From a virus: a DNA stretch of 64,000 bases. Below are positions 20,278-39,603 of the stretch, piece by piece (position 1 is the stretch's first letter; every line of letters begins with the position of its first letter). The notes beneath the pieces are model-generated. The model ran no database searches, had not been told where the DNA came from, and saw nothing but the letters and a program-made list of their open reading frames with translations. Made by a program: the position numbers and the translations under genes. The DNA is taken from the IMG/VR virus record IMGVR_UViG_3300010885_072825, positions 62,001-126,000 of that record. One strand, written 5' to 3'.

Positions 20278-21210
20278 TTAAACTCCCCAAGCATTCCCTT
20301 TGACATTGACATGATATCTAGGACTCATTCTGTAACCATATTTAAGGCACAAATCATATACTATTTCTTGATAGTGAATATATTCTTCATAACAACCACC
20401 AACTGGCATTAGAAATACTTGTTCTACTCCCAGTTCTTTTACAGCTTGTTCAACTTCGGGAATGTGTTCTTCACCAGCAACCACAAATTTCAAATACATG
20501 ATCCGAGCTTTGACCTGTTCAAAGCTGCGAATGACTTCGGGGCGAATGGCCTGACTCCACAATTCTCCACTAGCAGACAGTTTGGGACTAACTGAAAAAG
20601 TTACTGTAATTGGTCTGGGTGGTTCTGGAGTTGTGTATATCTCTCGGTATCCACCCAGACCATCGTCTTCTAATTCACCCTCTTCCCAAGCCCATATTTC
20701 ATGTGTTTTATTACGATCGTTAAAATAGTCAACCAATGCTTTGCTGAGTGGTTGCGTGCCATTAGTTTCAAAAGTGAGATTCGTTAATTCCGGCAATAGA
20801 TCCAAAAGTTTGGGATATGCACGTTGCCAGCCCAACAGTGGTTCGCCGCCTGTAATCACTAGATGAAACTCTTTGCCATTTTCTGTGTGAAATTTGCCAT
20901 CTGGCAACAAAGCTCGCATTTCATTTACCAAGTCTTCTTCTGTTTTCATTGGTGATAGATGTTTGAATTCAGTGTAGATAGCCGCATAGCTATCACACCC
21001 TGTTCTTACCAGTGGTAAATCGTCAAATTTTTCATAATTATCGATGTTTTTGATTATTTCACCAACTTCAGTTGTCTGTTCTCCCTTAGGTAACCCAAAT
21101 GATTTACATCGAAAATTACACCCGAATGTACGTAGAAAAATACTGGGTTGTCCAAGCCAATAGCCTTCTCCTTGATGAGCTGGTCCAAAAAGTTCTGATA
21201 CTTTAATCAT
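20278..21210 (-). CDS. queE: QueE-like radical SAM enzyme (7-carboxy-7-deazaguanine synthase) with split cluster motif
   Basis: 310 residues from the ATG at 21210 (AGAGGTAATT ribosome site). It contains the QueE N-terminus GPAHQGEGYWLGQPSIFLR, then CNFRC, FETNGTQPL and the C-terminal MPVG region. QueE makes CDG, the precursor of preQ0/queuosine and of 7-deazaguanine DNA modifications. The radical SAM motif is unusual. C31-x3-C35 is normal, but the third cysteine of C-x3-C-x2-C is missing. Instead GCDSYAAIY, which resembles the usual WCDTxYA, comes 36 residues later (C72). No queC, queD or transglycosylase gene is seen in the window. Confidence 0.8.
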   Translation of the reverse strand: MIKVSELFGPAHQGEGYWLGQPSIFLRTFGCNFRCKSFGLPKGEQTTEVGEIIKNIDNYEKFDDLPLVRTGCDSYAAIYTEFKHLSPMKTEEDLVNEMRALLPDGKFHTENGKEFHLVITGGEPLLGWQRAYPKLLDLLPELTNLTFETNGTQPLSKALVDYFNDRNKTHEIWAWEEGELEDDGLGGYREIYTTPEPPRPITVTFSVSPKLSASGELWSQAIRPEVIRSFEQVKARIMYLKFVVAGEEHIPEVEQAVKELGVEQVFLMPVGGCYEEYIHYQEIVYDLCLKYGYRMSPRYHVNVKGNAWGV

Positions 21211-21261
21211 AATTACCTCTGATTCTATCTTCAATTATTCTATATTCACTGGCTGCCAGTC

Positions 21262-21303: not shown

Positions 21304-22077
21304 TTATCGTACCCAGCTGGGAGGCGGTTGACATCCAGATGAACTACCATTTCCTGGGAATGGATTGGGAATCGTGGGAGAATTTTTTGTCCTAAGCTGT
21401 ATACCCATCTTCCGTAAATTTTCTGCTGTGTCATAATAAATGATCATTAGACTGTCTGCTGTTGTGGTATTGTATCTGACAAAGTTCACTTCTTGTGTTA
21501 TGTGATCAACAGCATTACCAAAAGCTGTTCCCACTTTTAATTGTGAGCAATTGTTGGTGGTAACAGTTGAAACTGTACTACGTAGATAAGAGTCGTGATG
21601 TGATGCAGCACTAATTAATATTGGTGTAGCAATATTAGAATGAAGATTTGCTGAATAACCGGCATAATTTGATAATGGTGTTGCATTTGAGTTCTCACCA
21701 AATACCATACACCCAATTACTCCTGTGTTAGCAACCGTACCGCCAATCTGATTTACATAGGAATTTGATTTTTTAGAGAAATAAAATTCTGCTGCTTCTC
21801 GGTTATTAAGTCTCCAGCCCGGTATTTCCATGCTTTGATTGGGTGATAACACATAACCTCTGCTGTGGATACCTGCCGGTAACCCATCAAGTATATCTAG
21901 TCCATCCACGCTTACGATGAACTGGGCACGTCGCCAATCATTGTTTTTTAGATAGATAGTGTACTTACTGCCTTCTCGTCCTTCAATCCAAATATTACCA
22001 TTGTGGAGGTATTCATCAGCAGCAGCACGACCATTTGGACGTATTTGCATTTCATATAGTGCGCCAGTATTAAACAT
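21304..22077 (-). CDS. conserved secreted/structural-type protein, function unknown
   Basis: 257 residues from the ATG at 22077. The order GNIWIEGREGSKYTIYLKNN, FIVSVDGLDILDG, GIHSRGYVLSP and SMEIPGWRL is a beta-rich domain that I recognise from uncharacterised bacterial and phage proteins. The C-terminus is low-complexity and Pro/Ser/Gly-rich. It overlaps the VWA gene by eight bases and is followed by a strong terminator, so it ends that operon. VWA pairing suggests a shared role, but no function can be given. Confidence 0.6.
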   Translation of the reverse strand: MFNTGALYEMQIRPNGRAAADEYLHNGNIWIEGREGSKYTIYLKNNDWRRAQFIVSVDGLDILDGLPAGIHSRGYVLSPNQSMEIPGWRLNNREAAEFYFSKKSNSYVNQIGGTVANTGVIGCMVFGENSNATPLSNYAGYSANLHSNIATPILISAASHHDSYLRSTVSTVTTNNCSQLKVGTAFGNAVDHITQEVNFVRYNTTTADSLMIIYYDTAENLRKMGIQLRTKNSPTIPNPFPGNGSSSGCQPPPSWVR

Positions 22078-22867
22078 GATTTGTGCCTCGCTTTTTAGAA
22101 CCACGAACTTTGACAGATGTAGTTGTTACCACATCTGCAACTGAATCAGACCATCCTGATGTTGCAGCACCTGAAGCATATATGGTTTGGGTATTCATAC
22201 CAGCAAATTTTGCACCACGCATTGCCGTAGTACTGGAACTCACTGAATTCATAGTCTTAATCATGTCAGAAGTACTATAAGATACGGTGTTGTGAGATCC
22301 CATGCCATAAGCAGATCCCACGCTGAATGCATCAATATTAGCTCCCAAGAAGATGAATGAATAATCAGCAGCTTCGCCTGCTGCCACCATTTCTTTGATT
22401 TGAGCATTGGTATATTTTTGACTAGCGTTTTCTTCACCATCTGTCATGATCACCACAATCACACCTGGACGTTCCAATTCAGGTACTGATCGAAGTACTT
22501 CATCTATATTTTGAATAGCAGACCCAATGGCATCATTCAAATTGGTCCCACCACCTGGTTGATAGTCACGAGTAGTTAATGGCTCTACCAATTCAATTGG
22601 TTTATTTTTATAAAGTGTGTGAATATGAGGTGCATTCAGCTTAGTGACTGTAAGATACGCTCGTCCGGCGCCTTCGGTGCGTTTTTGTCCATCAACAAAT
22701 TCATTGAATCCTGCGATAGTGCTGGCTTGAGCATGAGCCATGCTGCCGCTTTCATCTAAAATAATGCTGATTAATGTTCCGTTATTGGATGCTTTGGCAA
22801 ATTCCCATTTTTTATCTGCGGGGAACGCATTTGGTAGATCATTCAGAGCTGTAGTGTATGTTTTCAT
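22070..22867 (-). CDS. VWA-domain protein with intact MIDAS
   Basis: 265 residues. ISIILDESGSMAHAQ (about 32-46) is a D-x-S-x-S metal-ion-dependent adhesion site. GGGTNLNDAIG supplies the Thr ligand and VVIMTDGEENAS the last Asp. No signal peptide or membrane segment is seen, so it is probably a cytoplasmic or virion scaffold protein. It is the first gene of a two-gene unit behind a perfect TATAAATA box. Confidence 0.75.
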   Translation of the reverse strand: MKTYTTALNDLPNAFPADKKWEFAKASNNGTLISIILDESGSMAHAQASTIAGFNEFVDGQKRTEGAGRAYLTVTKLNAPHIHTLYKNKPIELVEPLTTRDYQPGGGTNLNDAIGSAIQNIDEVLRSVPELERPGVIVVIMTDGEENASQKYTNAQIKEMVAAGEAADYSFIFLGANIDAFSVGSAYGMGSHNTVSYSTSDMIKTMNSVSSSTTAMRGAKFAGMNTQTIYASGAATSGWSDSVADVVTTTSVKVRGSKKRGTNHV

Positions 22868-23243: not shown

Positions 23244-23867
23244 TCAAATCTGAGGAAATAATATTTGAGTCATGAAAGTTTTAGCAGACTGTTCACCAAT
23301 AATATTTTTCAATGCTCGGAATGTATGTTCATTCTGACGTTGTTTTTCACAATATCTATTTTGACCAATAGTAATTTCAGCAACATCACCTAATTCAGTT
23401 TGTAAAGTAGTCAAATAAGCGGTCAACACTCGCTTAGCTTCGTCTGCTATTAACCGCATTTCTGCTTCATCTGGGCGTGCTGCTATCCAGTGATCACTGA
23501 ATATATCGCCCCATGCTGGTCGTTCACGTTGTTTGACAATTGCAATGTCACTGAATGGTTTGAGTGGTTTGCTATTTGTTGGACTCAAATCTAAGAACAC
23601 ACCAGTGACTTTATTCTCACCCGCAATTACATCAAAGCCAAAGATGGGTGCTGTGTCATTAGCACGTGGAAAAACACAACAGTGAACTACCATAAATCTG
23701 TCTTGGTTGAAAATTTCAATATGTGCTAGACGAAATCGATCACTTGAATATCTATAATTTTCCCAACCCCAGTCTTCAGTTGGTATTTCGGTCAAATTAG
23801 ACTGACTTAATATTATTGCGTGTAATTCTCGAGCCAGGTTATCTAGAAAATGAATATAGTTCATCAT
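23244..23867 (-). CDS. pcyX: ferredoxin-dependent bilin reductase, PcyA/PcyX type
   Basis: 207 residues. The blocks VVHCCVFPRANDTAPIFGFD (61-79), FLDLSP, RPAWGDIFSDHWIAARP and RYCEKQRQNEHTFRAL with C-terminal ILFP line up with phycocyanobilin:ferredoxin oxidoreductase. By alignment E51, H62 and D79 correspond to PcyA Glu76, His88 and Asp105, the catalytic residues. The enzyme reduces biliverdin to a phycobilin with ferredoxin electrons. It overlaps the heme oxygenase gene by 29 bases. Marine phages carry a PcyA-related enzyme, PcyX, that makes phycoerythrobilin; which product is made here is open. It is shorter than cyanobacterial PcyA (about 248). Confidence 0.85.
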   Translation of the reverse strand: MMNYIHFLDNLARELHAIILSQSNLTEIPTEDWGWENYRYSSDRFRLAHIEIFNQDRFMVVHCCVFPRANDTAPIFGFDVIAGENKVTGVFLDLSPTNSKPLKPFSDIAIVKQRERPAWGDIFSDHWIAARPDEAEMRLIADEAKRVLTAYLTTLQTELGDVAEITIGQNRYCEKQRQNEHTFRALKNIIGEQSAKTFMTQILFPQI

Positions 23868-24351
23868 AAATCTTTATTATCCATTCGAATGATTTGATTG
23901 CTAGATCGGGATCTATATGTTTGGTATTGTTTCTAATAAAATCAATGGTTCCTGCTCTATCAATATAAGTCAAATAATTCAATTTGATTGGTTGTCGATC
24001 AGCAATAATAGAACCTCCGTAGAGATCTCCCAAATAATGCACATAAATAGGCGCCCAAATATCTTGGTCAGATAAAGTATTCAACCAAGAAATATATGCT
24101 TGAGCGGTTTTTGTTATTTTGCCTGGTGACTTTAGTGTTAATAAATCTTGTGAAATTAAATTCGATCTCATGAGTTCTGTATCGGCAAATAAATCACGTG
24201 CTTCAAAATGACTGTAGATCAAAATTAAATTGTAGAGATGATTGGACCATTCTGTTTTTGTAAGTTCGCCAGCAATCATTAGTTGACTCCAAGCAGTTTT
24301 TTCTGCTTGATGGTGAATATCAGATATAACGTCTTTTATTGATAGTGTCAT
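23839..24351 (-). CDS. ho1: heme oxygenase (biliverdin-forming)
   Basis: 170 residues. DIHHQAEKTAW places the proximal heme ligand at H13, in the family pattern H-x-x-A-E. HYLGDLYGGS (105-114) is the distal-helix motif, normally YLGDLSGGQ. The enzyme opens heme to biliverdin, CO and iron using reduced ferredoxin, and so feeds the bilin reductase encoded directly downstream. It is shorter than bacterial HO-1 (about 240), mainly at the C-terminus. Its ATG overlaps the stop of the upstream RyR-domain gene (ATGA), indicating translational coupling in a three-gene operon. Confidence 0.85.
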   Translation of the reverse strand: MTLSIKDVISDIHHQAEKTAWSQLMIAGELTKTEWSNHLYNLILIYSHFEARDLFADTELMRSNLISQDLLTLKSPGKITKTAQAYISWLNTLSDQDIWAPIYVHYLGDLYGGSIIADRQPIKLNYLTYIDRAGTIDFIRNNTKHIDPDLAIKSFEWIIKIYDELYSFSR

Positions 24352-24923
24352 TTTTCAGCAATTCGAAGACCCAAGTTATTTAGGGTTTCAAAAAGCGATA
24401 GGATCAACTCGAATTCCTGCTTTTGGTATTTTTCACTTAAATTTTCCCAAGGCATGATCATGGGATGCAGTTTATTCTTTTGATCCAATCGTATACCAAA
24501 ATTCCAACCCGCTTTTACTTTGGATTTCATCCAAGCCGTATGATGTTGTTTTGCAGCAGTTTCAACAATTTCTTTTAGCTTGTTATCATACTTTTCTTTG
24601 ACCTGATGCTTCATTCGAGTCAATTGACTAAAATTGATGATGAAGTTTTTATTCGTGGTCCAAGTTTTAGACCAAGCAGCCGCAATAGAACCAGCTTCAT
24701 GTTCTTGTAGATCTCTGCATAATACAACAACATAATGGGTTTTTCCATTATGTGTTCTATGCACATGAGTTAACATGCGTGGTTTGGAATCAATGAATAT
24801 TTCGGTTGAACTCACTATAGAAGGTGGTCCAACCGTTTCAACCAAGTCATACCAAAGTTGTTTTTCGGCTGGTGAAAGTTTTTCTTTGACAATTAACTCA
24901 ATAAATGGGAATTGATATTTCAT
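24348..24923 (-). CDS. RyR-domain protein, first gene of the heme oxygenase-bilin reductase operon
   Basis: 191 residues. Residues about 122-175 (AAKQHHTAWMKSKVKAGWNF, then KLHPMIMPWENLSEKYQKQE) match the RyR repeat named after ryanodine receptors: H-x-x-W, GW-x-x-G, HP-x-[LMI]-x-P-[WY]. The first 110 residues are a separate part with no family I recognise. It is coupled to the heme oxygenase gene by a four-base overlap and starts directly after ATAAATAAGGG, the same string as at the terminase gene. A role in bilin production or in sensing its product is possible but is inference from position only. Confidence 0.7.
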   Translation of the reverse strand: MKYQFPFIELIVKEKLSPAEKQLWYDLVETVGPPSIVSSTEIFIDSKPRMLTHVHRTHNGKTHYVVVLCRDLQEHEAGSIAAAWSKTWTTNKNFIINFSQLTRMKHQVKEKYDNKLKEIVETAAKQHHTAWMKSKVKAGWNFGIRLDQKNKLHPMIMPWENLSEKYQKQEFELILSLFETLNNLGLRIAEK

Positions 24924-24927
24924 CCCT

Positions 24928-24934
24928 TATTTAT
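24928..24934 (-). promoter_or_regulatory. late promoter box abutting the start of the RyR-HO-reductase operon
   Basis: Minus strand ATAAATAAGGGATG, identical over 14 bases to the terL start region. Four bases separate the box from the ATG. Confidence 0.5.
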
Positions 24935-24946
24935 CATTAAGTGTCG

Positions 24947-25390
24947 TTAGTCTTCTTCAACGTCGTCGTCATCAAACTCTTCGTCTGACATTTCACTGGA
25001 AAGCACAAAGCTGATATTGTCTACGTTACTTAGATCAGTTACAAAATTGTTGATTCTGCATACTGACAGTTCAACATCTCCAGACAATTTAAATGCCATG
25101 AATTGTTCTAGTACAAGATTGCCTTGTTCTTCCACATCTTCCACGGTCATTCCAGTAGTATCATTTGCATTGCAAATATGTTCAATATGTTCAGCACCCG
25201 ATTTATAATTGATGATGAATGTCAAACATGGAGGAATTTCTGCCAAGCCATCTCGTGACTTGCCAGATGTCCAACCAGCTTCTACCGCTGCTTGTGCTTC
25301 TTCAAACGTTGAATCAAATTGTTCTCGGTGTTCTTTTACCAGTTTCATTGCTGCAATTGATGAAACCTTATTCGTGTCTTTCATTACCAT
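24947..25390 (-). CDS. acidic hypothetical protein
   Basis: 147 residues with a strongly acidic C-terminus (SDEEFDDDDVEED). The middle contains CLTFIINYKSGAEHIEHICN and LSVCRINNFVTDL. It could be a DNA mimic or a binding protein, but no family is recognised. It overlaps the preceding small gene by seven bases. Confidence 0.6.
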   Translation of the reverse strand: MVMKDTNKVSSIAAMKLVKEHREQFDSTFEEAQAAVEAGWTSGKSRDGLAEIPPCLTFIINYKSGAEHIEHICNANDTTGMTVEDVEEQGNLVLEQFMAFKLSGDVELSVCRINNFVTDLSNVDNISFVLSSEMSDEEFDDDDVEED

Positions 25391-29638: not shown

Positions 29639-30871
29639 TCAATCAATTTCTCGAACATCCCATGCTTGCGGACCCCAGCTGGTATATTTTACTTGAACTT
29701 GATTTTGATGTCGAAGACGACCAACAAAATCTTTAGATCTAGCTTCCACAACTTCATTTGATCCAGGATGGATATATGAAATATTATCAAACTGATCCAA
29801 ACATGTGACGGCCAATTGAGGAGTGTTCAGTTTGATTTTGAACACTGTGGCCATTGCCTGAGATCGTTCCCAATCTGATTGAATGTTCTTATAGAGCTCG
29901 TTAAGATCCAGAGGCGCGAATCGCAAAGTATCTTGCCATGGATTGGGTTTGTTGGTTTGATCAACTACTTGAGAAAAATCCATTTTCAAATTTTCCCATT
30001 TTAGTGGACCTGCTCCATGGCGAGTGGCATAGCAGCGGGTCACATATACAGGGGTGATTTCTTTTACTCCCAGTTCAGCCGCAGTATGAATTGCACTGAG
30101 CAGTCCCGTAATCGACCTAGTCACATGGGGAAATTCACCCATAAGTTCATCCAACCCCAGACCCTGTGCACCTTCAAAAATCACAGGTGTATCTTCCCAA
30201 ATGTTGAAAGGGTTGAAATTGGGTTGAATCACTTTGAGAGTTTCTAGCATACGTTTGATCATGGCCCATTCTGAATCAACATTCATCAATGGTACAAATT
30301 TTTGATATTCGGGGAGATGTTCAAATGGTTCTAGTAGTGGTTTGTAATATTCCTGTACTCGCAAAAGACTGAGAGAACTAGTACCATAACAACAATCATT
30401 GAGAACCAACTGCGCTGATGGATCTTGATTTCTAGTTACCGTAGCATTCACACCCAAACCACAGGACCCATGCTTGCTAGTACCTCGACTAATTTCTTGC
30501 AATTGATTATATGCAATATCCCAAATTGTGGTGATGATTGCGCTGGGATGAGCCCAAAAATTATAATGATAGGGACCATCAACATGTTGGATTCCCAATG
30601 CTTGTAATTGATCCCATTCTTTTAGAAATGCAAATGGATTGACGATAAAATTACTAGATAGATAAGTTCTAGATCCAGCAAGTGTTCCAGATCCAAAGTG
30701 ACCAAACACATGACGATGTTGATCTGTTACCACAGTGTGTCCAGCTTGAGCTCCGCCATTAACACGAGCAACTAGTGTATTTTTTGGACCTAACTTTCTA
30801 GCTAGATAATCAGTAATCAAGCCTTTGCCTTCATCACCATATCCAGCACCAATAACAGCATAGTTCGTCAT
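29639..30871 (-). CDS. purA: adenylosuccinate synthetase
   Basis: 410 residues from the ATG at 30871 (CAAGGTGACGTC before it). VIGAGYGDEGKG (6-17) is the GTP-binding loop with catalytic D13; NGGAQAGHTV, GTSKHGSCGLGVNATVTRNQ (split), EGAQGLGLDELMG and VTRCYATRHGAGP follow the family order. The enzyme makes adenylosuccinate from IMP and Asp for AMP synthesis. PurZ, the phage homologue for 2-aminoadenine, is reported to lack this Asp, so normal adenine synthesis is favoured. A perfect TTGACA-N16-TATAAT promoter lies upstream. Confidence 0.88.
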   Translation of the reverse strand: MTNYAVIGAGYGDEGKGLITDYLARKLGPKNTLVARVNGGAQAGHTVVTDQHRHVFGHFGSGTLAGSRTYLSSNFIVNPFAFLKEWDQLQALGIQHVDGPYHYNFWAHPSAIITTIWDIAYNQLQEISRGTSKHGSCGLGVNATVTRNQDPSAQLVLNDCCYGTSSLSLLRVQEYYKPLLEPFEHLPEYQKFVPLMNVDSEWAMIKRMLETLKVIQPNFNPFNIWEDTPVIFEGAQGLGLDELMGEFPHVTRSITGLLSAIHTAAELGVKEITPVYVTRCYATRHGAGPLKWENLKMDFSQVVDQTNKPNPWQDTLRFAPLDLNELYKNIQSDWERSQAMATVFKIKLNTPQLAVTCLDQFDNISYIHPGSNEVVEARSKDFVGRLRHQNQVQVKYTSWGPQAWDVREID

Positions 30872-30894
30872 GACGTCACCTTGAAGTTTCATAG

Positions 30895-30979: not shown

Positions 30980-31561
30980 GTGTCTATTGAAGAAATTAGA
31001 AAACTTATTGATTTATTAGAATCTGTTGATCAACATCAAGTACTTGGTGAGTCTATTTGGCCAAGTGCGGAAAAACGTACTGCTAAAGAACTTAAAAGGG
31101 ATGAAGCCAAGCGAAGAAAGCTAACTCCAACAGTAGATGAACAAGCACAGGATTTGTTACCAGCTGTAAAAAAAGCATTTAATTATGTGGTAAATGGTGG
31201 AAATAGGCCAGACGGGGTTTATATTCGTATAGAAGAAAATAAAAAAATATCATTTAAACTCAGTGGTGATTATATTACATCTTATGCAACGCCATTTAAT
31301 ATATTATTATGCACCAAACGAAATAATATGTTGGGGTGGGATGCAGATAATAATAAGTTATACTTGTTTGAATACAAAAATATCGGTACGTCTAAGACCC
31401 CAATATTCATACCACACACCAGATATGTGGATTTTAAATTTCCCGGAGAATATAATCCGCAGTTACCAGGGGATGTCAAAAAGGCATCCGCTATTTTGAA
31501 GACATTATGTGATTCTCCTGAATACAAGGATTTCACAAAATATTATACATATTTCAGCTAG
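30980..31561 (+). CDS. unknown protein with capsid-targeting-like leader
   Basis: 193 residues with a GTG start supported by CCGGAGAACAAC. The first 26 residues (MSIEEIRKLIDLLESVDQHQ, then VLGES) resemble the leader of the HExxH protein at 10500 and contain L-L-E|S and L-G-E|S. The remainder is a soluble domain with aromatic C-terminus (YKDFTKYYTYFS). It is late-expressed on the plus strand and overlaps the convergent thg1 gene by four bases. Possibly an injected virion protein; no family is recognised. Confidence 0.55.
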   Translation: MSIEEIRKLIDLLESVDQHQVLGESIWPSAEKRTAKELKRDEAKRRKLTPTVDEQAQDLLPAVKKAFNYVVNGGNRPDGVYIRIEENKKISFKLSGDYITSYATPFNILLCTKRNNMLGWDADNNKLYLFEYKNIGTSKTPIFIPHTRYVDFKFPGEYNPQLPGDVKKASAILKTLCDSPEYKDFTKYYTYFS

Positions 31562-32385
31562 CGAAACAACCAAGCAACTTTTTCATCAATCGACCAGGTT
31601 CTAAATTCAGGGCAGGGAGCACTTTTGATCACATGTCGATCAAACAAAGTATCTGGTGAGGGTCGATGTGCGGCCGGGATGCCATCAAGTTCTTTGTTAG
31701 TCAGAGGGTGTTGAACCAAGTATCGACGTACCCAAGTGCCGTGGACAAATGCAGCCGGAAACGAATCAATCAGATGGTCAAGCTCAGCCAACCGTTGTCG
31801 CATTTCTTGACTGTTTTGCCCTTGCAAACTCTTATGGGAAAAATAATGATGGGCTGCCATACTGGTGGAATTTTTCTCACAATCCAATACCCTCCAAAGC
31901 ATGGCATTGGCTGCTTCAGTTTGTGAGGGCAGAGAAAAAACCCTGGCATCAAAATGCGGAATATATTCTTGCAGTGCCTGAACTCGACCGTGATAATCGT
32001 CACTAGCATCTATTGAATGCATGAATTTAGAACTGGCCATACCAGACAGTACACTAGACATCTTAGTGACTTTGCCTGAAAACCAATCAGGTTTAGCCCA
32101 AACTAAACTGATTTCATCGCTTTGAGTGAATCCTGCCAGTGCATGGGTTTGCTCCACAAGGTACTCGGTGGTCTTGACCATGCATGCATGAAAATTGACA
32201 TCAAATGGTCGTTCTAAATTTTTGGTTAGTTTGGAAAAACTGCGCCCATCTATCCTAGCATACACGGGTAGATCTTCAGGCAATCGAATCTCAGTGTACA
32301 CTGATTCTAATTCCTTCATTCGATCACCCAGCTCGTCTTTGGATACAGAAACCAAAGGTTTACGATCTTCGTCTAAGAATGTCAT
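31558..32385 (-). CDS. thg1: tRNA(His) guanylyltransferase-like protein (Thg1/TLP)
   Basis: 275 residues. VYARIDGRSFSKLTK (41-55) has the first metal-binding Asp (D46) and FTQSDEISLVW (87-96) the second acidic pair, the two-metal site shared with palm polymerases. Bacterial and viral Thg1-like proteins add nucleotides in the 3'-to-5' direction and can repair truncated tRNA 5' ends. The length is typical (about 260-280). It adds a 5'-end repair activity to the phage's RNA ligases and kinase. Confidence 0.85.
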   Translation of the reverse strand: MTFLDEDRKPLVSVSKDELGDRMKELESVYTEIRLPEDLPVYARIDGRSFSKLTKNLERPFDVNFHACMVKTTEYLVEQTHALAGFTQSDEISLVWAKPDWFSGKVTKMSSVLSGMASSKFMHSIDASDDYHGRVQALQEYIPHFDARVFSLPSQTEAANAMLWRVLDCEKNSTSMAAHHYFSHKSLQGQNSQEMRQRLAELDHLIDSFPAAFVHGTWVRRYLVQHPLTNKELDGIPAAHRPSPDTLFDRHVIKSAPCPEFRTWSIDEKVAWLFR

Positions 32386-36141: not shown

Positions 36142-37068
36142 ATGCATAATTTATGTCCGGTATGTCAATTTCCTAAAAAACATTCTATAGAAAAACCAAC
36201 AATGCCATCTTTATGGAGTAGAACATGTGGGCAAAAATCATGCATAAAAATTTTAACCCAACAAACTAATTTAGAACAGTTTGGTCATATTTCTAATTTA
36301 CATCGTAAATTAGAAAATGGAAACACTGTACTTCAAGAAACAATGTTAAATAAATATCAAGTTTTTAATGTTTCTCAAATAGATAGTGTTAAACAGAAAA
36401 AACAAGAAACCTGTTTAGAAAATTTTGGAGTACCATGGCCGATGCAATCTGCATTAGTAAAACAAAAATCTGTTGAAACTGTTCTTGAAAAATATGGAGT
36501 CACTAATGTTTCTAAATCTCCATCTGTTATTGCAAAAATTAAACAAACTCAAATTGATAAGTATGGTTGTTATTTTATGCAAACCTCTGAAGGAAAAGAG
36601 TTGTTAAAAAATATTTGCCGAGAAAAATACGGAGTAGATTGGTATTTTAATTCGGAACATTTCAAAACTCAATTAGAAGCTAGAAACCTTGAACTATTTG
36701 GTGTAACTAATCCTTTCTATTCATCTGTGGTACAATCTCAAATAGCTAAAAGAAATGGTAAGGGTAAATCAAAAGAAGAAACTAAATGGTTAGATTCTTT
36801 ATGCATTGATGAAACCTTTCGACAATATCCGATCACAGGAAAAAGTGGGAAAACATATATGGTTGATGGGTTTGATCCGATTACTAATACTGTTTATGAA
36901 TGGAATGGTTCTTTTTGGCATGGTAACCCAGATTATTATGATTCGCATATATCACATCCTGTCAAAAAGAACAAAACGTTTGGTGAATTATATGAACAAA
37001 CTGTTGCTAGAGAACAAGACATGTTAGACGCTGGATACGAACTCATAGCTAAATGGTCAGTATTGTAG
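36142..37068 (+). CDS. free-standing homing-type endonuclease (VSR-like fold) with YG repeats
   Basis: 308 residues. The N-terminal zinc-like part (CPVCQF, CGQKSC) precedes four to five repeats of about 30 residues with the pattern E-T-x-L-x-K-Y-G-V-x-N-x-S-x-S (ETVLEKYGVTNVSKSP), a DNA-binding array. The C-terminus (TYMVDGFDPITNTVYEWNGS, FWHGNP, ELIAKWSVL) resembles the VSR/EDxHD nuclease fold. It lies opposite to its neighbours, is more AT-rich than they are, and overlaps the NAMPT gene by 20 bases at the 3' end. It is probably a mobile homing endonuclease. Confidence 0.75.
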   Translation: MHNLCPVCQFPKKHSIEKPTMPSLWSRTCGQKSCIKILTQQTNLEQFGHISNLHRKLENGNTVLQETMLNKYQVFNVSQIDSVKQKKQETCLENFGVPWPMQSALVKQKSVETVLEKYGVTNVSKSPSVIAKIKQTQIDKYGCYFMQTSEGKELLKNICREKYGVDWYFNSEHFKTQLEARNLELFGVTNPFYSSVVQSQIAKRNGKGKSKEETKWLDSLCIDETFRQYPITGKSGKTYMVDGFDPITNTVYEWNGSFWHGNPDYYDSHISHPVKKNKTFGELYEQTVAREQDMLDAGYELIAKWSVL

Positions 37069-38386
37069 AATTTGCGCGACTACGGATTGTATCTAATGTG
37101 TCATTTACTAAGAGTTTTCCTTCTTTATAATAATCAATCAACAATTTATGATCCAATCTTCCACCTTTGCTACGTTTCCCATTATCAGTGATCGGACTTT
37201 TTACGGTGTCTCTCCATTCATTCCTAACTCGAATAGCAGATGTTTTTTGCGCAAATGAGAAATCATCTCGATTTACATTTTGAAGTAATCCTCCGCCACT
37301 ACCATAAATTACACATTCTGGAGCATACCCCAATTGCTCAACCATTATGGTAAGCTCTTCAAATGTACGTCGATTGATACCATCTCCTTGAATAATACCA
37401 ACATTTTTGAGCACTTTATATCCTTTACTATTAATAGTAACGCCAAAGCCTGCTTCCAGCATATTTAAAATACGCGGAATAACTTCGGTGGGTTCACCAG
37501 AATCCGGGCGCACTACCCATTTAACGCCGGATTCAACAATGCGGTCTCGATATTCATCGCATAGTAGTTGAACTTCTCGATAAATGTCATACCCGTCCAT
37601 TACTGCGGAAATAATAGCACCGGGCTTTGCAAACTTTTCAAGCAATCTATCGAAATATTCTCTGGCGCCATCGATTCCATAACTAGTTTCTACAGAATGC
37701 TCAGTGGCAACAACTGAATATCCTGCCATATCACAATTATAATATTCTCGGGCTGCTACAAGTGCAACTAAATCATCAGTGCCTCGGAAATATAACAGGT
37801 GTGCTAGACCACCAATTTCTGCGGTTTCCCTAGAACTAACACCTCGGCTTGCAAAAGAATGCAAGGAAAATTCCAACATTGTTGGATTATCACTACTCAA
37901 ATCATAAATCTTTTTTAAGTGTTCATAACTAATTCGATCTAAACTTGCAATAGTTGTTGGATACCAAATACCGCGTTGAAGACTAGTTTCAACAAATGAT
38001 GCTAACCAAAATAGTCGGGAATCATCACATTCAACAGTAACAATTGGCGTTAAACTGTTAACCAATGTTCCTTCCGGAACACCTCGAATTGTAAATGGAA
38101 TATATCCATTGTATTTTGATACTAGATATTCCCAATCAGATGTATCAAAAGGCATACCATGCTTGACAGCAATATCTTGTGCAAGTTGAATATTTTCAAA
38201 CGTAATAGGATTCATTAGATTTTTCTTGATCCACATTTGCAGACCAAAAGGCACAATAATCTGATTGGGTTTTCTTGCTTCGATATACGAAAACATAGCA
38301 TTAGTGCCTTCTGGATAGGCATATTTATGAGATAGTTTATAGGAATCTGCATCAAGCAGGAAGGAAATAGTATTCAAAATCGTCAT
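37049..38386 (-). CDS. nadV: nicotinamide phosphoribosyltransferase (NAMPT)
   Basis: 445 residues from the ATG at 38386 (GGGAG eight bases before). DADSYKLSHKYAYPEGTNAM starts the family pattern. FASRGVSSRETAEIGGLAHL, VMDGYDIYRE, VVRPDSGEPTEVIPR, IQGDGINRRTFEEL and SGGGLLQNVNRDDFSFA form the phosphoribosyl and nicotinamide sites. It makes NMN from nicotinamide and PRPP. The next gene upstream encodes the NMN adenylyltransferase that completes NAD synthesis, so the two form a salvage pathway. The length is close to other bacterial and phage NAMPTs (about 460-490). Confidence 0.92.
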   Translation of the reverse strand: MTILNTISFLLDADSYKLSHKYAYPEGTNAMFSYIEARKPNQIIVPFGLQMWIKKNLMNPITFENIQLAQDIAVKHGMPFDTSDWEYLVSKYNGYIPFTIRGVPEGTLVNSLTPIVTVECDDSRLFWLASFVETSLQRGIWYPTTIASLDRISYEHLKKIYDLSSDNPTMLEFSLHSFASRGVSSRETAEIGGLAHLLYFRGTDDLVALVAAREYYNCDMAGYSVVATEHSVETSYGIDGAREYFDRLLEKFAKPGAIISAVMDGYDIYREVQLLCDEYRDRIVESGVKWVVRPDSGEPTEVIPRILNMLEAGFGVTINSKGYKVLKNVGIIQGDGINRRTFEELTIMVEQLGYAPECVIYGSGGGLLQNVNRDDFSFAQKTSAIRVRNEWRDTVKSPITDNGKRSKGGRLDHKLLIDYYKEGKLLVNDTLDTIRSRANSTILTI

Positions 38387-38421
38387 GTTCAAGTCTCCCT
38401 TGAGGTTTAAGTTTAAAATGT

Positions 38422-39603
38422 TTATAGTCCAAGAATTTTAGAAATCACATCAAAATGGTCTTCAAAAAAGGGTTCGCTTGTGATTTCACTAAATGGCAAC
38501 CAAAAAGCAGCATCAGCATCATCAGCGCCTTCAACTTCCGGAAAATTATTAGCAAGCGGACCACGCACATCCGGAAGGTATGTTTGGTCATTGAGTTTAA
38601 AGTGAAACACCTTGCTGTATACTCGACCACGATCAGATCTGTGTGGATGGTCTGCGTCAAATGTGGTTGCAATAGATCCTCGCAATACCGGTTCAGGTAC
38701 CTTGAGTCGAGTTTCTTCACGTAATTCTCGAAGAGCAGCCGACAGCAGAGTTTCATCTGGGTTCACATGCCCACCCGGCATTGCCAACAGACTGTTACCA
38801 ATTTCACCAGCACGACGAATTACCAACACATGTCCTGATTGAGTTACCAGCGCGTCTGCACAGATTTCCTGAACAGGATATTCTGCGTGTCTCTGTCTGC
38901 GTTGTTTGTATTCAACGCTGGATGTAATGTATCTTTGAATCTGATCATATTCATTGTGATCTTCAAATTCCTGCAAAGATTTTAGCACAGCAGGATCCAC
39001 TCGGTTCTTCAAATAAGACCATTTGCTGTCATTAAGCAACACATTGGTGTCTACACCAAAGTAAGCATTTCGAATATCAGTTGCATTCAGAGGATTGAGA
39101 AAACGCACATTCACGTTGCCACATTGTGGGAACAGTTTGAGATAATAGCTGGAGCTGTCTTTGCTGCAACCAATCAAACCGATCTTTCGATTGCGACTGA
39201 CATTACCAAACTTGGTTTCCATAACTTCCTTGACAATGTTTTGTACTTGTGCAAGCCAAAGCTCGTCTCGATAAGTAAAATCTTCGAGTGGTTGAATCAG
39301 CAACTTGCTGTTCGGAACATGTGTAAAGCTATTGCGAATCATGTCTCGACGTTCTGTCCAAGACCAAGGATTGCGTGGATGTCTGGGTCTGTATGCTGAA
39401 CCAATCAAAACCAAAACTTTTTTGGATTTTTTCAGTGCAATATCAATTACTCGCTTGTGTCCAAGATGGAATGGTTGCATACGACCAATAAACACAAGAA
39501 GATCATATTCTTCGTCGTGTAGATTGCCTTCGTAAAGGTCTTCAATTTCAATTATGGGGTTATAGATATCGTCCGAATAGGACGGGGTGTTTTGTGTTTT
39601 CAT
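38422..39603 (-). CDS. nadM: bifunctional NMN adenylyltransferase / Nudix hydrolase
   Basis: 393 residues. The N-terminal domain (about 30-215) has [13 protein letters not shown] (nucleotidyltransferase H-x-G-H) and [20 protein letters not shown], the NMN adenylyltransferase signature. The C-terminal domain has the Nudix box [20 protein letters not shown] followed by ET, as in ADP-ribose pyrophosphatases. The first domain turns NMN plus ATP into NAD; the second would hydrolyse ADP-ribose or NAD-related compounds. The gene is 36 bases upstream of nadV in the same transcript. TTGACA with a -10 overlapping an ATAAATAG box lies in front. Confidence 0.9.

What the first reader, a model, noticed from the sequence alone, without database searches (positions are those of the whole stretch)
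23244..24934. Coupled operon RyR-domain protein, heme oxygenase and bilin reductase
Three genes overlap (ATGA, then 29 bases), which indicates one translation unit. Heme oxygenase carries H13 of H-x-x-A-E and YLGDLYGG. The reductase keeps residues equivalent to PcyA Glu76, His88 and Asp105. Heme-to-phycobilin pairs are known from marine phages (PebS and PcyX), but a RyR-domain protein as the leading third member is, as far as I know, not described, and its first 110 residues match nothing I know. The phage could make a pigment, or destroy or signal with heme.
Basis: partly seen in the sequence, partly recalled or inferred. Interest (0 to 1): 0.9.

Follow-up and report, generated by a model that had tools for sequence, protein, structure and literature searches.

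The report
Phage heme-to-bilin genes behind anti-defence-like gene
A relative of very large phages carries a conserved three-gene block in which a likely immune-signal-binding protein is coupled to two enzymes predicted to turn heme into the blue pigment phycocyanobilin; each part is known separately, but their stable pairing, and an altered heme oxygenase in most relatives, are new and testable.

Summary
In detail: on the minus strand, RyR (24923-24348), heme oxygenase (24351-23839) and bilin reductase (23867-23244) overlap by ATGA and 29 bases, and all three families are confirmed. RyR is not clearly the leading gene; packed ORFs lie upstream. The order recurs in 14 IMG/VR contigs (7 further sequence types) under purifying selection. 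The reductase is PcyA-like (Glu51/His62/Asp79), outside the PcyX clade, so phycocyanobilin is predicted, as shown for freshwater phage CB_2. Phage RyR-domain proteins were described in 2026 (RyDEP) as anti-Thoeris proteins that cleave or sequester cADPR; here His128, Trp131 and His153 are kept, with Glu170 at the catalytic Asp. The same record carries NadV and NadM-Nudix NAD-salvage genes. In complete relatives (Phosso, Atu_ph07) a similar two-domain RyR protein lies beside a DNA ligase without HO or FDBR, so the bilin genes look inserted behind an older counter-defence gene. Best reading: two co-expressed modules, NAD-signal counter-defence and heme-to-bilin conversion. Unexpected: every other member of the block has Trp or Tyr at the HO catalytic Asp140 position. 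Substrates, product and role in infection are predictions, not tested.

The parts
24348..24923 (-). RyR-domain protein, 191 aa: N-terminal domain (about residues 1-105, predicted beta-alpha-beta-beta-alpha-beta) plus C-terminal RyR domain
   Evidence: ORF; PF02026; AF2 model (mean pLDDT 73); Foldseek to B. thetaiotaomicron RyR-like protein; BFVD top hit Atu_ph07 RyR protein
24357..24587 (-). RyR domain (residues 113-189) with H128, W131, H153, E170 in the columns of RyDEP H75, W78, H100, D117
   Evidence: RyDEP residues from PMC13232231
23839..24351 (-). Heme oxygenase, 170 aa (His13 proximal, D109 = human HO-1 D140 position, G108/G112/G113)
   Evidence: PF01126; AF2 pLDDT 93.9; Foldseek to HmuO/HO-1, TM about 0.8; alignments
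23244..23867 (-). Ferredoxin-dependent bilin reductase, PcyA-like by residues (E51, H62, D79), 207 aa
   Evidence: PF05996; PDB best hit PcyX 5OWG, then PcyA; residue table; tree
24348..24351 (-). ATGA stop/start overlap of RyR and HO genes
23839..23867 (-). 29-base overlap of HO and FDBR genes
22070..22867 (-). VWA-domain protein; conserved downstream neighbour, also found in L001, L003, L058, L074/L077 and L120
21304..22104 (-). Conserved downstream neighbour of unknown function, follows the VWA gene in relatives too
24947..25390 (-). Unknown 147-aa ORF 23 bases upstream of RyR, possibly in the same transcription unit
   Evidence: no family hit
37049..38392 (-). NadV-type nicotinamide phosphoribosyltransferase (NAD salvage; supports the NAD-axis reading of RyR)
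   Evidence: Pfam; PHROG 448 E=1e-124
38422..39603 (-). Bifunctional NMN adenylyltransferase/Nudix (NadM-Nudix)
   Evidence: PDB 2QJO E=3.5e-59

Best explanation
The block is two modules expressed together in a jumbo-type phage. Module 1: the RyR-domain protein binds, and perhaps hydrolyses, ADP-ribose-type immune signals (2'cADPR/3'cADPR), protecting the phage from Thoeris-like defence; phage NadV and NadM-Nudix elsewhere in the record rebuild NAD+. Module 2: the heme oxygenase opens host heme to biliverdin IX-alpha, CO and Fe2+, and the PcyA-type reductase reduces biliverdin to phycocyanobilin with electrons from host ferredoxin. The HO-FDBR pair was most likely inserted behind an older RyR gene in an ancestor of this phage clade and has stayed coupled to it. 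Shown here: gene identities, folds for HO and the RyR domain, active-site residues, recurrence, constraint, absence of HO/FDBR in three complete phages with the related RyR gene. Inferred: substrates, product, anti-Thoeris role, direction of insertion. Unknown: what the bilin does in the cell.
For: RyR: PF02026; alignment to DyoEdafos RyDEP gp78, the tested anti-Thoeris glycosidase, puts H128/W131/H153 on H75/W78/H100 (PMC13232231). That paper found that six of eight tested phage homologs bind cADPRs and that two tested sponges restore infection. RyDEP itself sits in a NAD-synthesis operon, and this record has NadV and NadM-Nudix; two related block contigs also have NadV. HO: fold and proximal His. 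FDBR: Glu/His/Asp triad, whereas PcyX-type viral reductases carry Asp at the first position; own clade at 99/96 outside PcyX; the CB_2 phage FDBR lacking the PcyX Asp makes PCB (PMC11480375); Glu76 is the residue needed for 18-vinyl reduction (PMC10151467). Module independence: RyR next to DNA ligase without HO/FDBR in Phosso, Atu_ph07, L210, L211-L213, and HO-FDBR without RyR in most viral loci.
Against: RyDEP's catalytic Asp117 is Glu170 here, and overall identity to RyDEP is only about 19%. The window RyR stays joined to HO, FDBR and the VWA pair although the tail-fibre and ligase flanks of its relatives are not beside it, which hints at some advantage in staying together. No Fer2 ferredoxin was found in the record, nor a bilin acceptor of the phycobilisome family. 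FDBR scores below NCBIfam's PcyA equivalog cut-off, 104 against 206 bits. Host and host defences are unknown.
Confidence: 0.55

Rival explanations
1. One pathway: the RyR protein works with HO and FDBR, for example as a nucleotide-sensing regulator, a bilin or heme carrier, or a scaffold.
For: ATGA coupling and retention of RyR-HO-FDBR across 8 sequence types with about 30% identity in RyR and HO, also where the flanks differ.
Against: A two-domain RyR protein of the same build exists without HO/FDBR in three complete jumbo-phage genomes, and most HO-FDBR pairs lack RyR. Residues known to bind nucleotides are kept. Locus comparison explains the adjacency as an insertion.
Confidence: 0.2
2. The reductase makes a product other than phycocyanobilin, such as phycoerythrobilin (PcyX-like) or phytochromobilin.
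For: Closest solved structure is PcyX, and the clade lies on the PcyX/alpha-proteobacterial branch. Relatives L074 and L120 carry Gln at the Glu76 position.
Against: The window protein keeps the full PcyA triad; CB_2 vPcyA, described as midway between PcyX and PcyA, makes PCB.
Confidence: 0.25
3. The pair is there to destroy heme (removing a respiratory cofactor or releasing iron and CO), the bilin being a by-product cleared by the reductase.
For: No phage-encoded phycobilisome protein, photosynthetic reaction-centre protein or ALA synthase in the records searched. Iron-dependent 2OG oxygenases are encoded nearby here and next to the pair in Mosig.
Against: A conserved PcyA triad, and the strongest conservation of the three falling on the reductase (51-61% against about 30% for HO), suggest that the bilin product matters. 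HO alone would suffice for heme removal.
Confidence: 0.3
4. In the relatives with Trp/Tyr at the HO Asp140 position the enzyme does something else (different regiochemistry, peroxidase-like, or heme binding only), so the block is not one conserved pathway.
For: The D140 position is W or Y in all seven other sequence types of the block and D in nearly every other viral HO compared; the W/Y types form one HO clade at 100/99. Asp140His in human HO-1 cuts activity (PMC7948506).
Against: Plant HO-1 lacks this Asp and is active through another hydrogen-bond network (PMC7948506). The genes are under constraint and keep the proximal His.
Confidence: 0.3

Closest known systems
RyDEP, mycobacteriophage DyoEdafos gp78, and phage RyR-domain homologs (PMC13232231, 2026 preprint)
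   Same: PF02026 RyR domain; His75, Trp78, His100 equivalents kept; NAD-synthesis genes in the same genome
   Different: Glu at the Asp117 position; extra N-terminal domain of about 105 residues; coupled to HO-FDBR rather than to NARP1 genes; activity untested
RyR proteins of Agrobacterium phage Atu_ph07, Sinorhizobium phage Phosso, Salicola phage SCTP-2
   Same: Related over the whole length, 23-24% identity; Phosso and Atu_ph07 also have the nearest large terminases
   Different: No HO or FDBR in those genomes; Phosso and Atu_ph07 have RyR beside DNA ligase genes and Asp near the position of Glu170
hemO-pcyX cassette of marine phages, including Pelagibacter phage Mosig (PMC11480375)
   Same: HO directly followed by an overlapping FDBR gene
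   Different: PcyX carries Asp at the Glu76 position; no RyR gene
CB_2 phage vHemO and vPcyA (PMC11480375)
   Same: Large freshwater phage with HO and a PcyA-type FDBR lacking the PcyX Asp; enzymes shown to make biliverdin and PCB
   Different: Comes with ALA synthase, not found here. Whether CB_2 lies in the same FDBR clade could not be tested, its sequence not being in the collections used
Cyanophage PebS and PcyA
   Same: Phage-encoded bilin reductases
   Different: The P-RSM6 PebS lacks the His88 equivalent; cyanophage PcyA groups with cyanobacterial PcyA, this one does not

Membership tests
Phage RyR-domain (RyDEP) family | PF02026 domain over the curated cut-off | tested here: met
   52.8 bits against 27.4
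Phage RyR-domain (RyDEP) family | Ligand residues H75, W78, H100 | tested here: met
   H128, W131, H153; the other members of the block have Ser at the third position
Phage RyR-domain (RyDEP) family | Catalytic Asp117 (glycosidase type) | tested here: not met
   Glu170 in the window and all members of the block; so it is not filed as a glycosidase. Binding without cleavage is common among tested homologs
Phage RyR-domain (RyDEP) family | Binds or cleaves 2'/3'cADPR and defeats Thoeris | not testable with these tools
   needs protein
Heme oxygenase (PF01126) | Fold and proximal His | tested here: met
   AF2 pLDDT 93.9, Foldseek to HmuO and HO-1; His13 invariant
Heme oxygenase (PF01126) | Distal-helix Asp140 and glycines | tested here: met
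   HYLGDLYGG in the window; Asp replaced by Trp/Tyr in the other members of the block; the human Arg136 position is His105 here
PcyA | Glu76, His88, Asp105 | tested here: met
   E51, H62, D79
PcyA | Over the NCBIfam equivalog cut-off | tested here: not met
   104 bits against 206; it is PcyA-like, not a canonical cyanobacterial PcyA
PcyA | Makes phycocyanobilin | not testable with these tools
   needs enzyme assay
PcyX | Asp in place of Glu76 | tested here: not met
   Glu51
PcyX | Lies inside the PcyX clade | tested here: not met
   separate clade 99/96; the clade with PcyX 100/99
PebS | No His88 equivalent; groups with PebS | tested here: not met
   His62 present; P-RSM6 PebS is the distant outgroup
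hemO-pcyA/X-valaS cassette | ALA synthase in the cassette or genome | tested here: inconclusive
   no TIGR01821 match in 9 records, most of them fragments

The most novel reading that the evidence does not exclude
RyR, HO and FDBR form one counter-defence device: cADPR capture and heme removal or bilin production block the same host response, and in most of the clade the HO has been remodelled (Asp140 to Trp/Tyr) for a new heme reaction.
Probability: 0.08. Interest if true: 0.85.

Novelty: new variant of a known kind. Interest (0 to 1): 0.5.

Why it matters
It links two active topics, phage evasion of NAD-derived immune signals and the unexplained heme-to-bilin genes of phages without photosynthesis genes, in one conserved block. 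It predicts a PcyA-type enzyme in phages other than cyanophages, gives RyR-domain proteins a second conserved genomic setting, and offers a natural set of heme oxygenases that lack the catalytic Asp yet are maintained.

Tried and rejected
PcyX and PebS identity for the reductase (residues and tree). Chance or decayed ORFs (pN well below pS in all three genes; pS is saturated in many pairs, so omega values are rough). A cyanophage origin (no Photo_RC or phycobilisome matches). A phage-supplied Fer2 ferredoxin. ALA synthase and AmoC (but no control genome rang in that search). PADLOC models for the block (no hits). An alignment scan with A1 failed; scans with the window RyR and with Phosso RyR alone found no relatives. 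No file of the whole record was available, so the record was read in pieces. The RyR-linked contigs were found with patterns derived from members of the block, so their 14-of-14 linkage is biased; the broader scan found other RyR loci, none with HO or FDBR on the stretch fetched except contigs of the block already known.

Full report
OBSERVATION. The three ORFs are real and lie on the minus strand at the stated place. The RyR stop and HO start share ATGA at 24351-24348; HO and FDBR overlap by 29 bases. Pfam identifies all three over their cut-offs. Two further ORFs (25390-24947 and 25608-25384) lie tightly upstream, so RyR is the first of the trio but not evidently the first gene of the transcript; promoter and terminator scans are uninformative.

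SETTING. The window is part of a 139,590-base virus record. The large terminase (8333-6762) is nearest to those of the jumbo phages Phosso and Atu_ph07, at about 45% identity. No tRNA was found in the window. The record is probably a fragment, so absences are weak evidence.

RECURRENCE. HMM searches of the fetched loci find RyR-HO-FDBR in the same order in 14 IMG/VR contigs, falling into seven sequence types besides the window. One, L120, has a gene between RyR and HO whose start resembles a GIY-YIG endonuclease. Between the window and these relatives FDBR keeps 51-61% identity, HO and RyR about 30%. Synonymous sites are near saturation and pN is well below pS in all three genes: all are maintained. 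The tree of the reductases puts the block members and three RyR-less loci (L006, L043, L044) in one clade at 99/96, while the grouping of window plus the other seven is itself weak, 46/0.

HOW THE BLOCK AROSE. In Phosso, Atu_ph07, L210 and L211-L213 a RyR protein of the same two-domain build lies close before an ATP-dependent DNA ligase gene or a short ligase-related ORF. The full Phosso, Atu_ph07 and SCTP-2 genomes hold neither FDBR nor HO by the same searches that find both in five block records. In L001, L003, L004/L005, L074/L077 and L119 the order is collagen-like or tail-fibre-like genes, RyR, HO, FDBR, often the VWA pair, then the same ligase. The simplest reading is that HO-FDBR and the VWA pair were inserted between RyR and ligase; loss in the other lineages is not excluded. 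The window keeps RyR, HO, FDBR and the VWA pair, but neither the ligase nor such upstream genes are beside it.

RyR PROTEIN. The fold model is modest (pLDDT 73, pTM 0.47), with the C-terminal part matching RyR-like structures and the N-terminal part predicted as a beta-alpha-beta-beta-alpha-beta domain; the best viral match is the Atu_ph07 RyR protein. A 2026 preprint (PMC13232231) shows that phage RyR-domain proteins cleave or sequester 2'cADPR and 3'cADPR and defeat Thoeris. I fetched RyDEP itself and aligned it: His75, Trp78 and His100 correspond to His128, Trp131 and His153; Asp117 corresponds to Glu170. A sponge is therefore at least as likely as a glycosidase. The record also encodes NadV and NadM-Nudix, a nicotinamide-to-NAD+ route. 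NAD-replenishing counter-defences NARP1 and NARP2 are named in PMC11984713 and PMC12300627; that NARP2 consists of these two activities is from my own knowledge. NadV also occurs in two block records and in SCTP-2.

HEME OXYGENASE. The model is confident (pLDDT 94) and matches HmuO and HO-1 at TM about 0.8 of the query. The window keeps the proximal His and the Asp at the human Asp140 position. All seven other types of the block have Trp or Tyr there and form one clade at 100/99 together with L047, also Trp; 12 of 84 unique HO sequences are of this type. Asp140His reduces human HO-1 activity, but plant HO-1 works with His there (PMC7948506), so activity is open.

REDUCTASE. The triad is that of PcyA. 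Of 127 unique FDBR sequences, 70 have Glu-His-Asp, 53 Asp-His-Asp (the PcyX reference and most HO-linked viral ones), two Gln-His-Asp (L074, L120). Glu76 is required for reduction of the 18-vinyl group (PMC10151467). The freshwater phage CB_2 reductase lacks the PcyX-specific Asp55 and makes PCB (PMC11480375). In the 5OWG chain the Asp of this column is residue 63, which equals Asp55 if the chain bears an eight-residue tag (inference). I predict PCB. CB_2 is a 527-kb phage predicted to infect Methylocystis (PMC7674155 and PMC11480375); whether it belongs to this clade could not be checked.

VERDICT. A well-supported, conserved combination of two known kinds of phage function; the anti-Thoeris role of RyR and the PCB product are predictions. 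The co-occurrence was not found in the papers searched. The surprise that deserves attention beyond the original finding is the HO clade without the catalytic Asp.

Noticed in passing
HO genes of L001, L003, L004, L058, L074/L077, L119, L120; also L047: Heme oxygenase Asp140 position replaced by Trp or Tyr in a whole clade of maintained phage HO genes, while the window keeps Asp.
   Followed up: partly
window 37049-39603 (-): NadV and NadM-Nudix NAD-salvage genes side by side, in the same phage as the RyR protein.
   Followed up: partly
FDBR genes of L074, L077, L078 and L120: Gln at the PcyA Glu76 position (L074 and L120 tabulated), expected to change the product.
   Followed up: no
L120:3053-3892 and L078:7190-7840: ORFs whose starts look like GIY-YIG endonucleases, one of them inserted between RyR and HO (recognised by eye, not by a family search).
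   Followed up: no
window 20278-21234 (-): Radical-SAM protein with QueE similarity below the curated cut-offs, possibly 7-deazaguanine related.
   Followed up: no
window 31558-32385 (-): Thg1-type tRNAHis guanylyltransferase in a phage.
   Followed up: no
window 29639-30892 (-): Adenylosuccinate synthetase (PurA-like) gene, which in some phages belongs to modified-base synthesis (the link to modified bases is from memory).
   Followed up: no
L123, L125, L126, L134: HO plus PcyX-type FDBR in contigs binned as bacteria; L123, L125 and L126 fall among the viral sequences in the trees, so they may be mis-binned phage contigs.
   Followed up: no
L039 (Pelagibacter phage Mosig): HO-PcyX pair follows several 2OG-Fe(II) oxygenase genes and a putative ferrochelatase gene, hinting at an iron or heme theme.
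   Followed up: no
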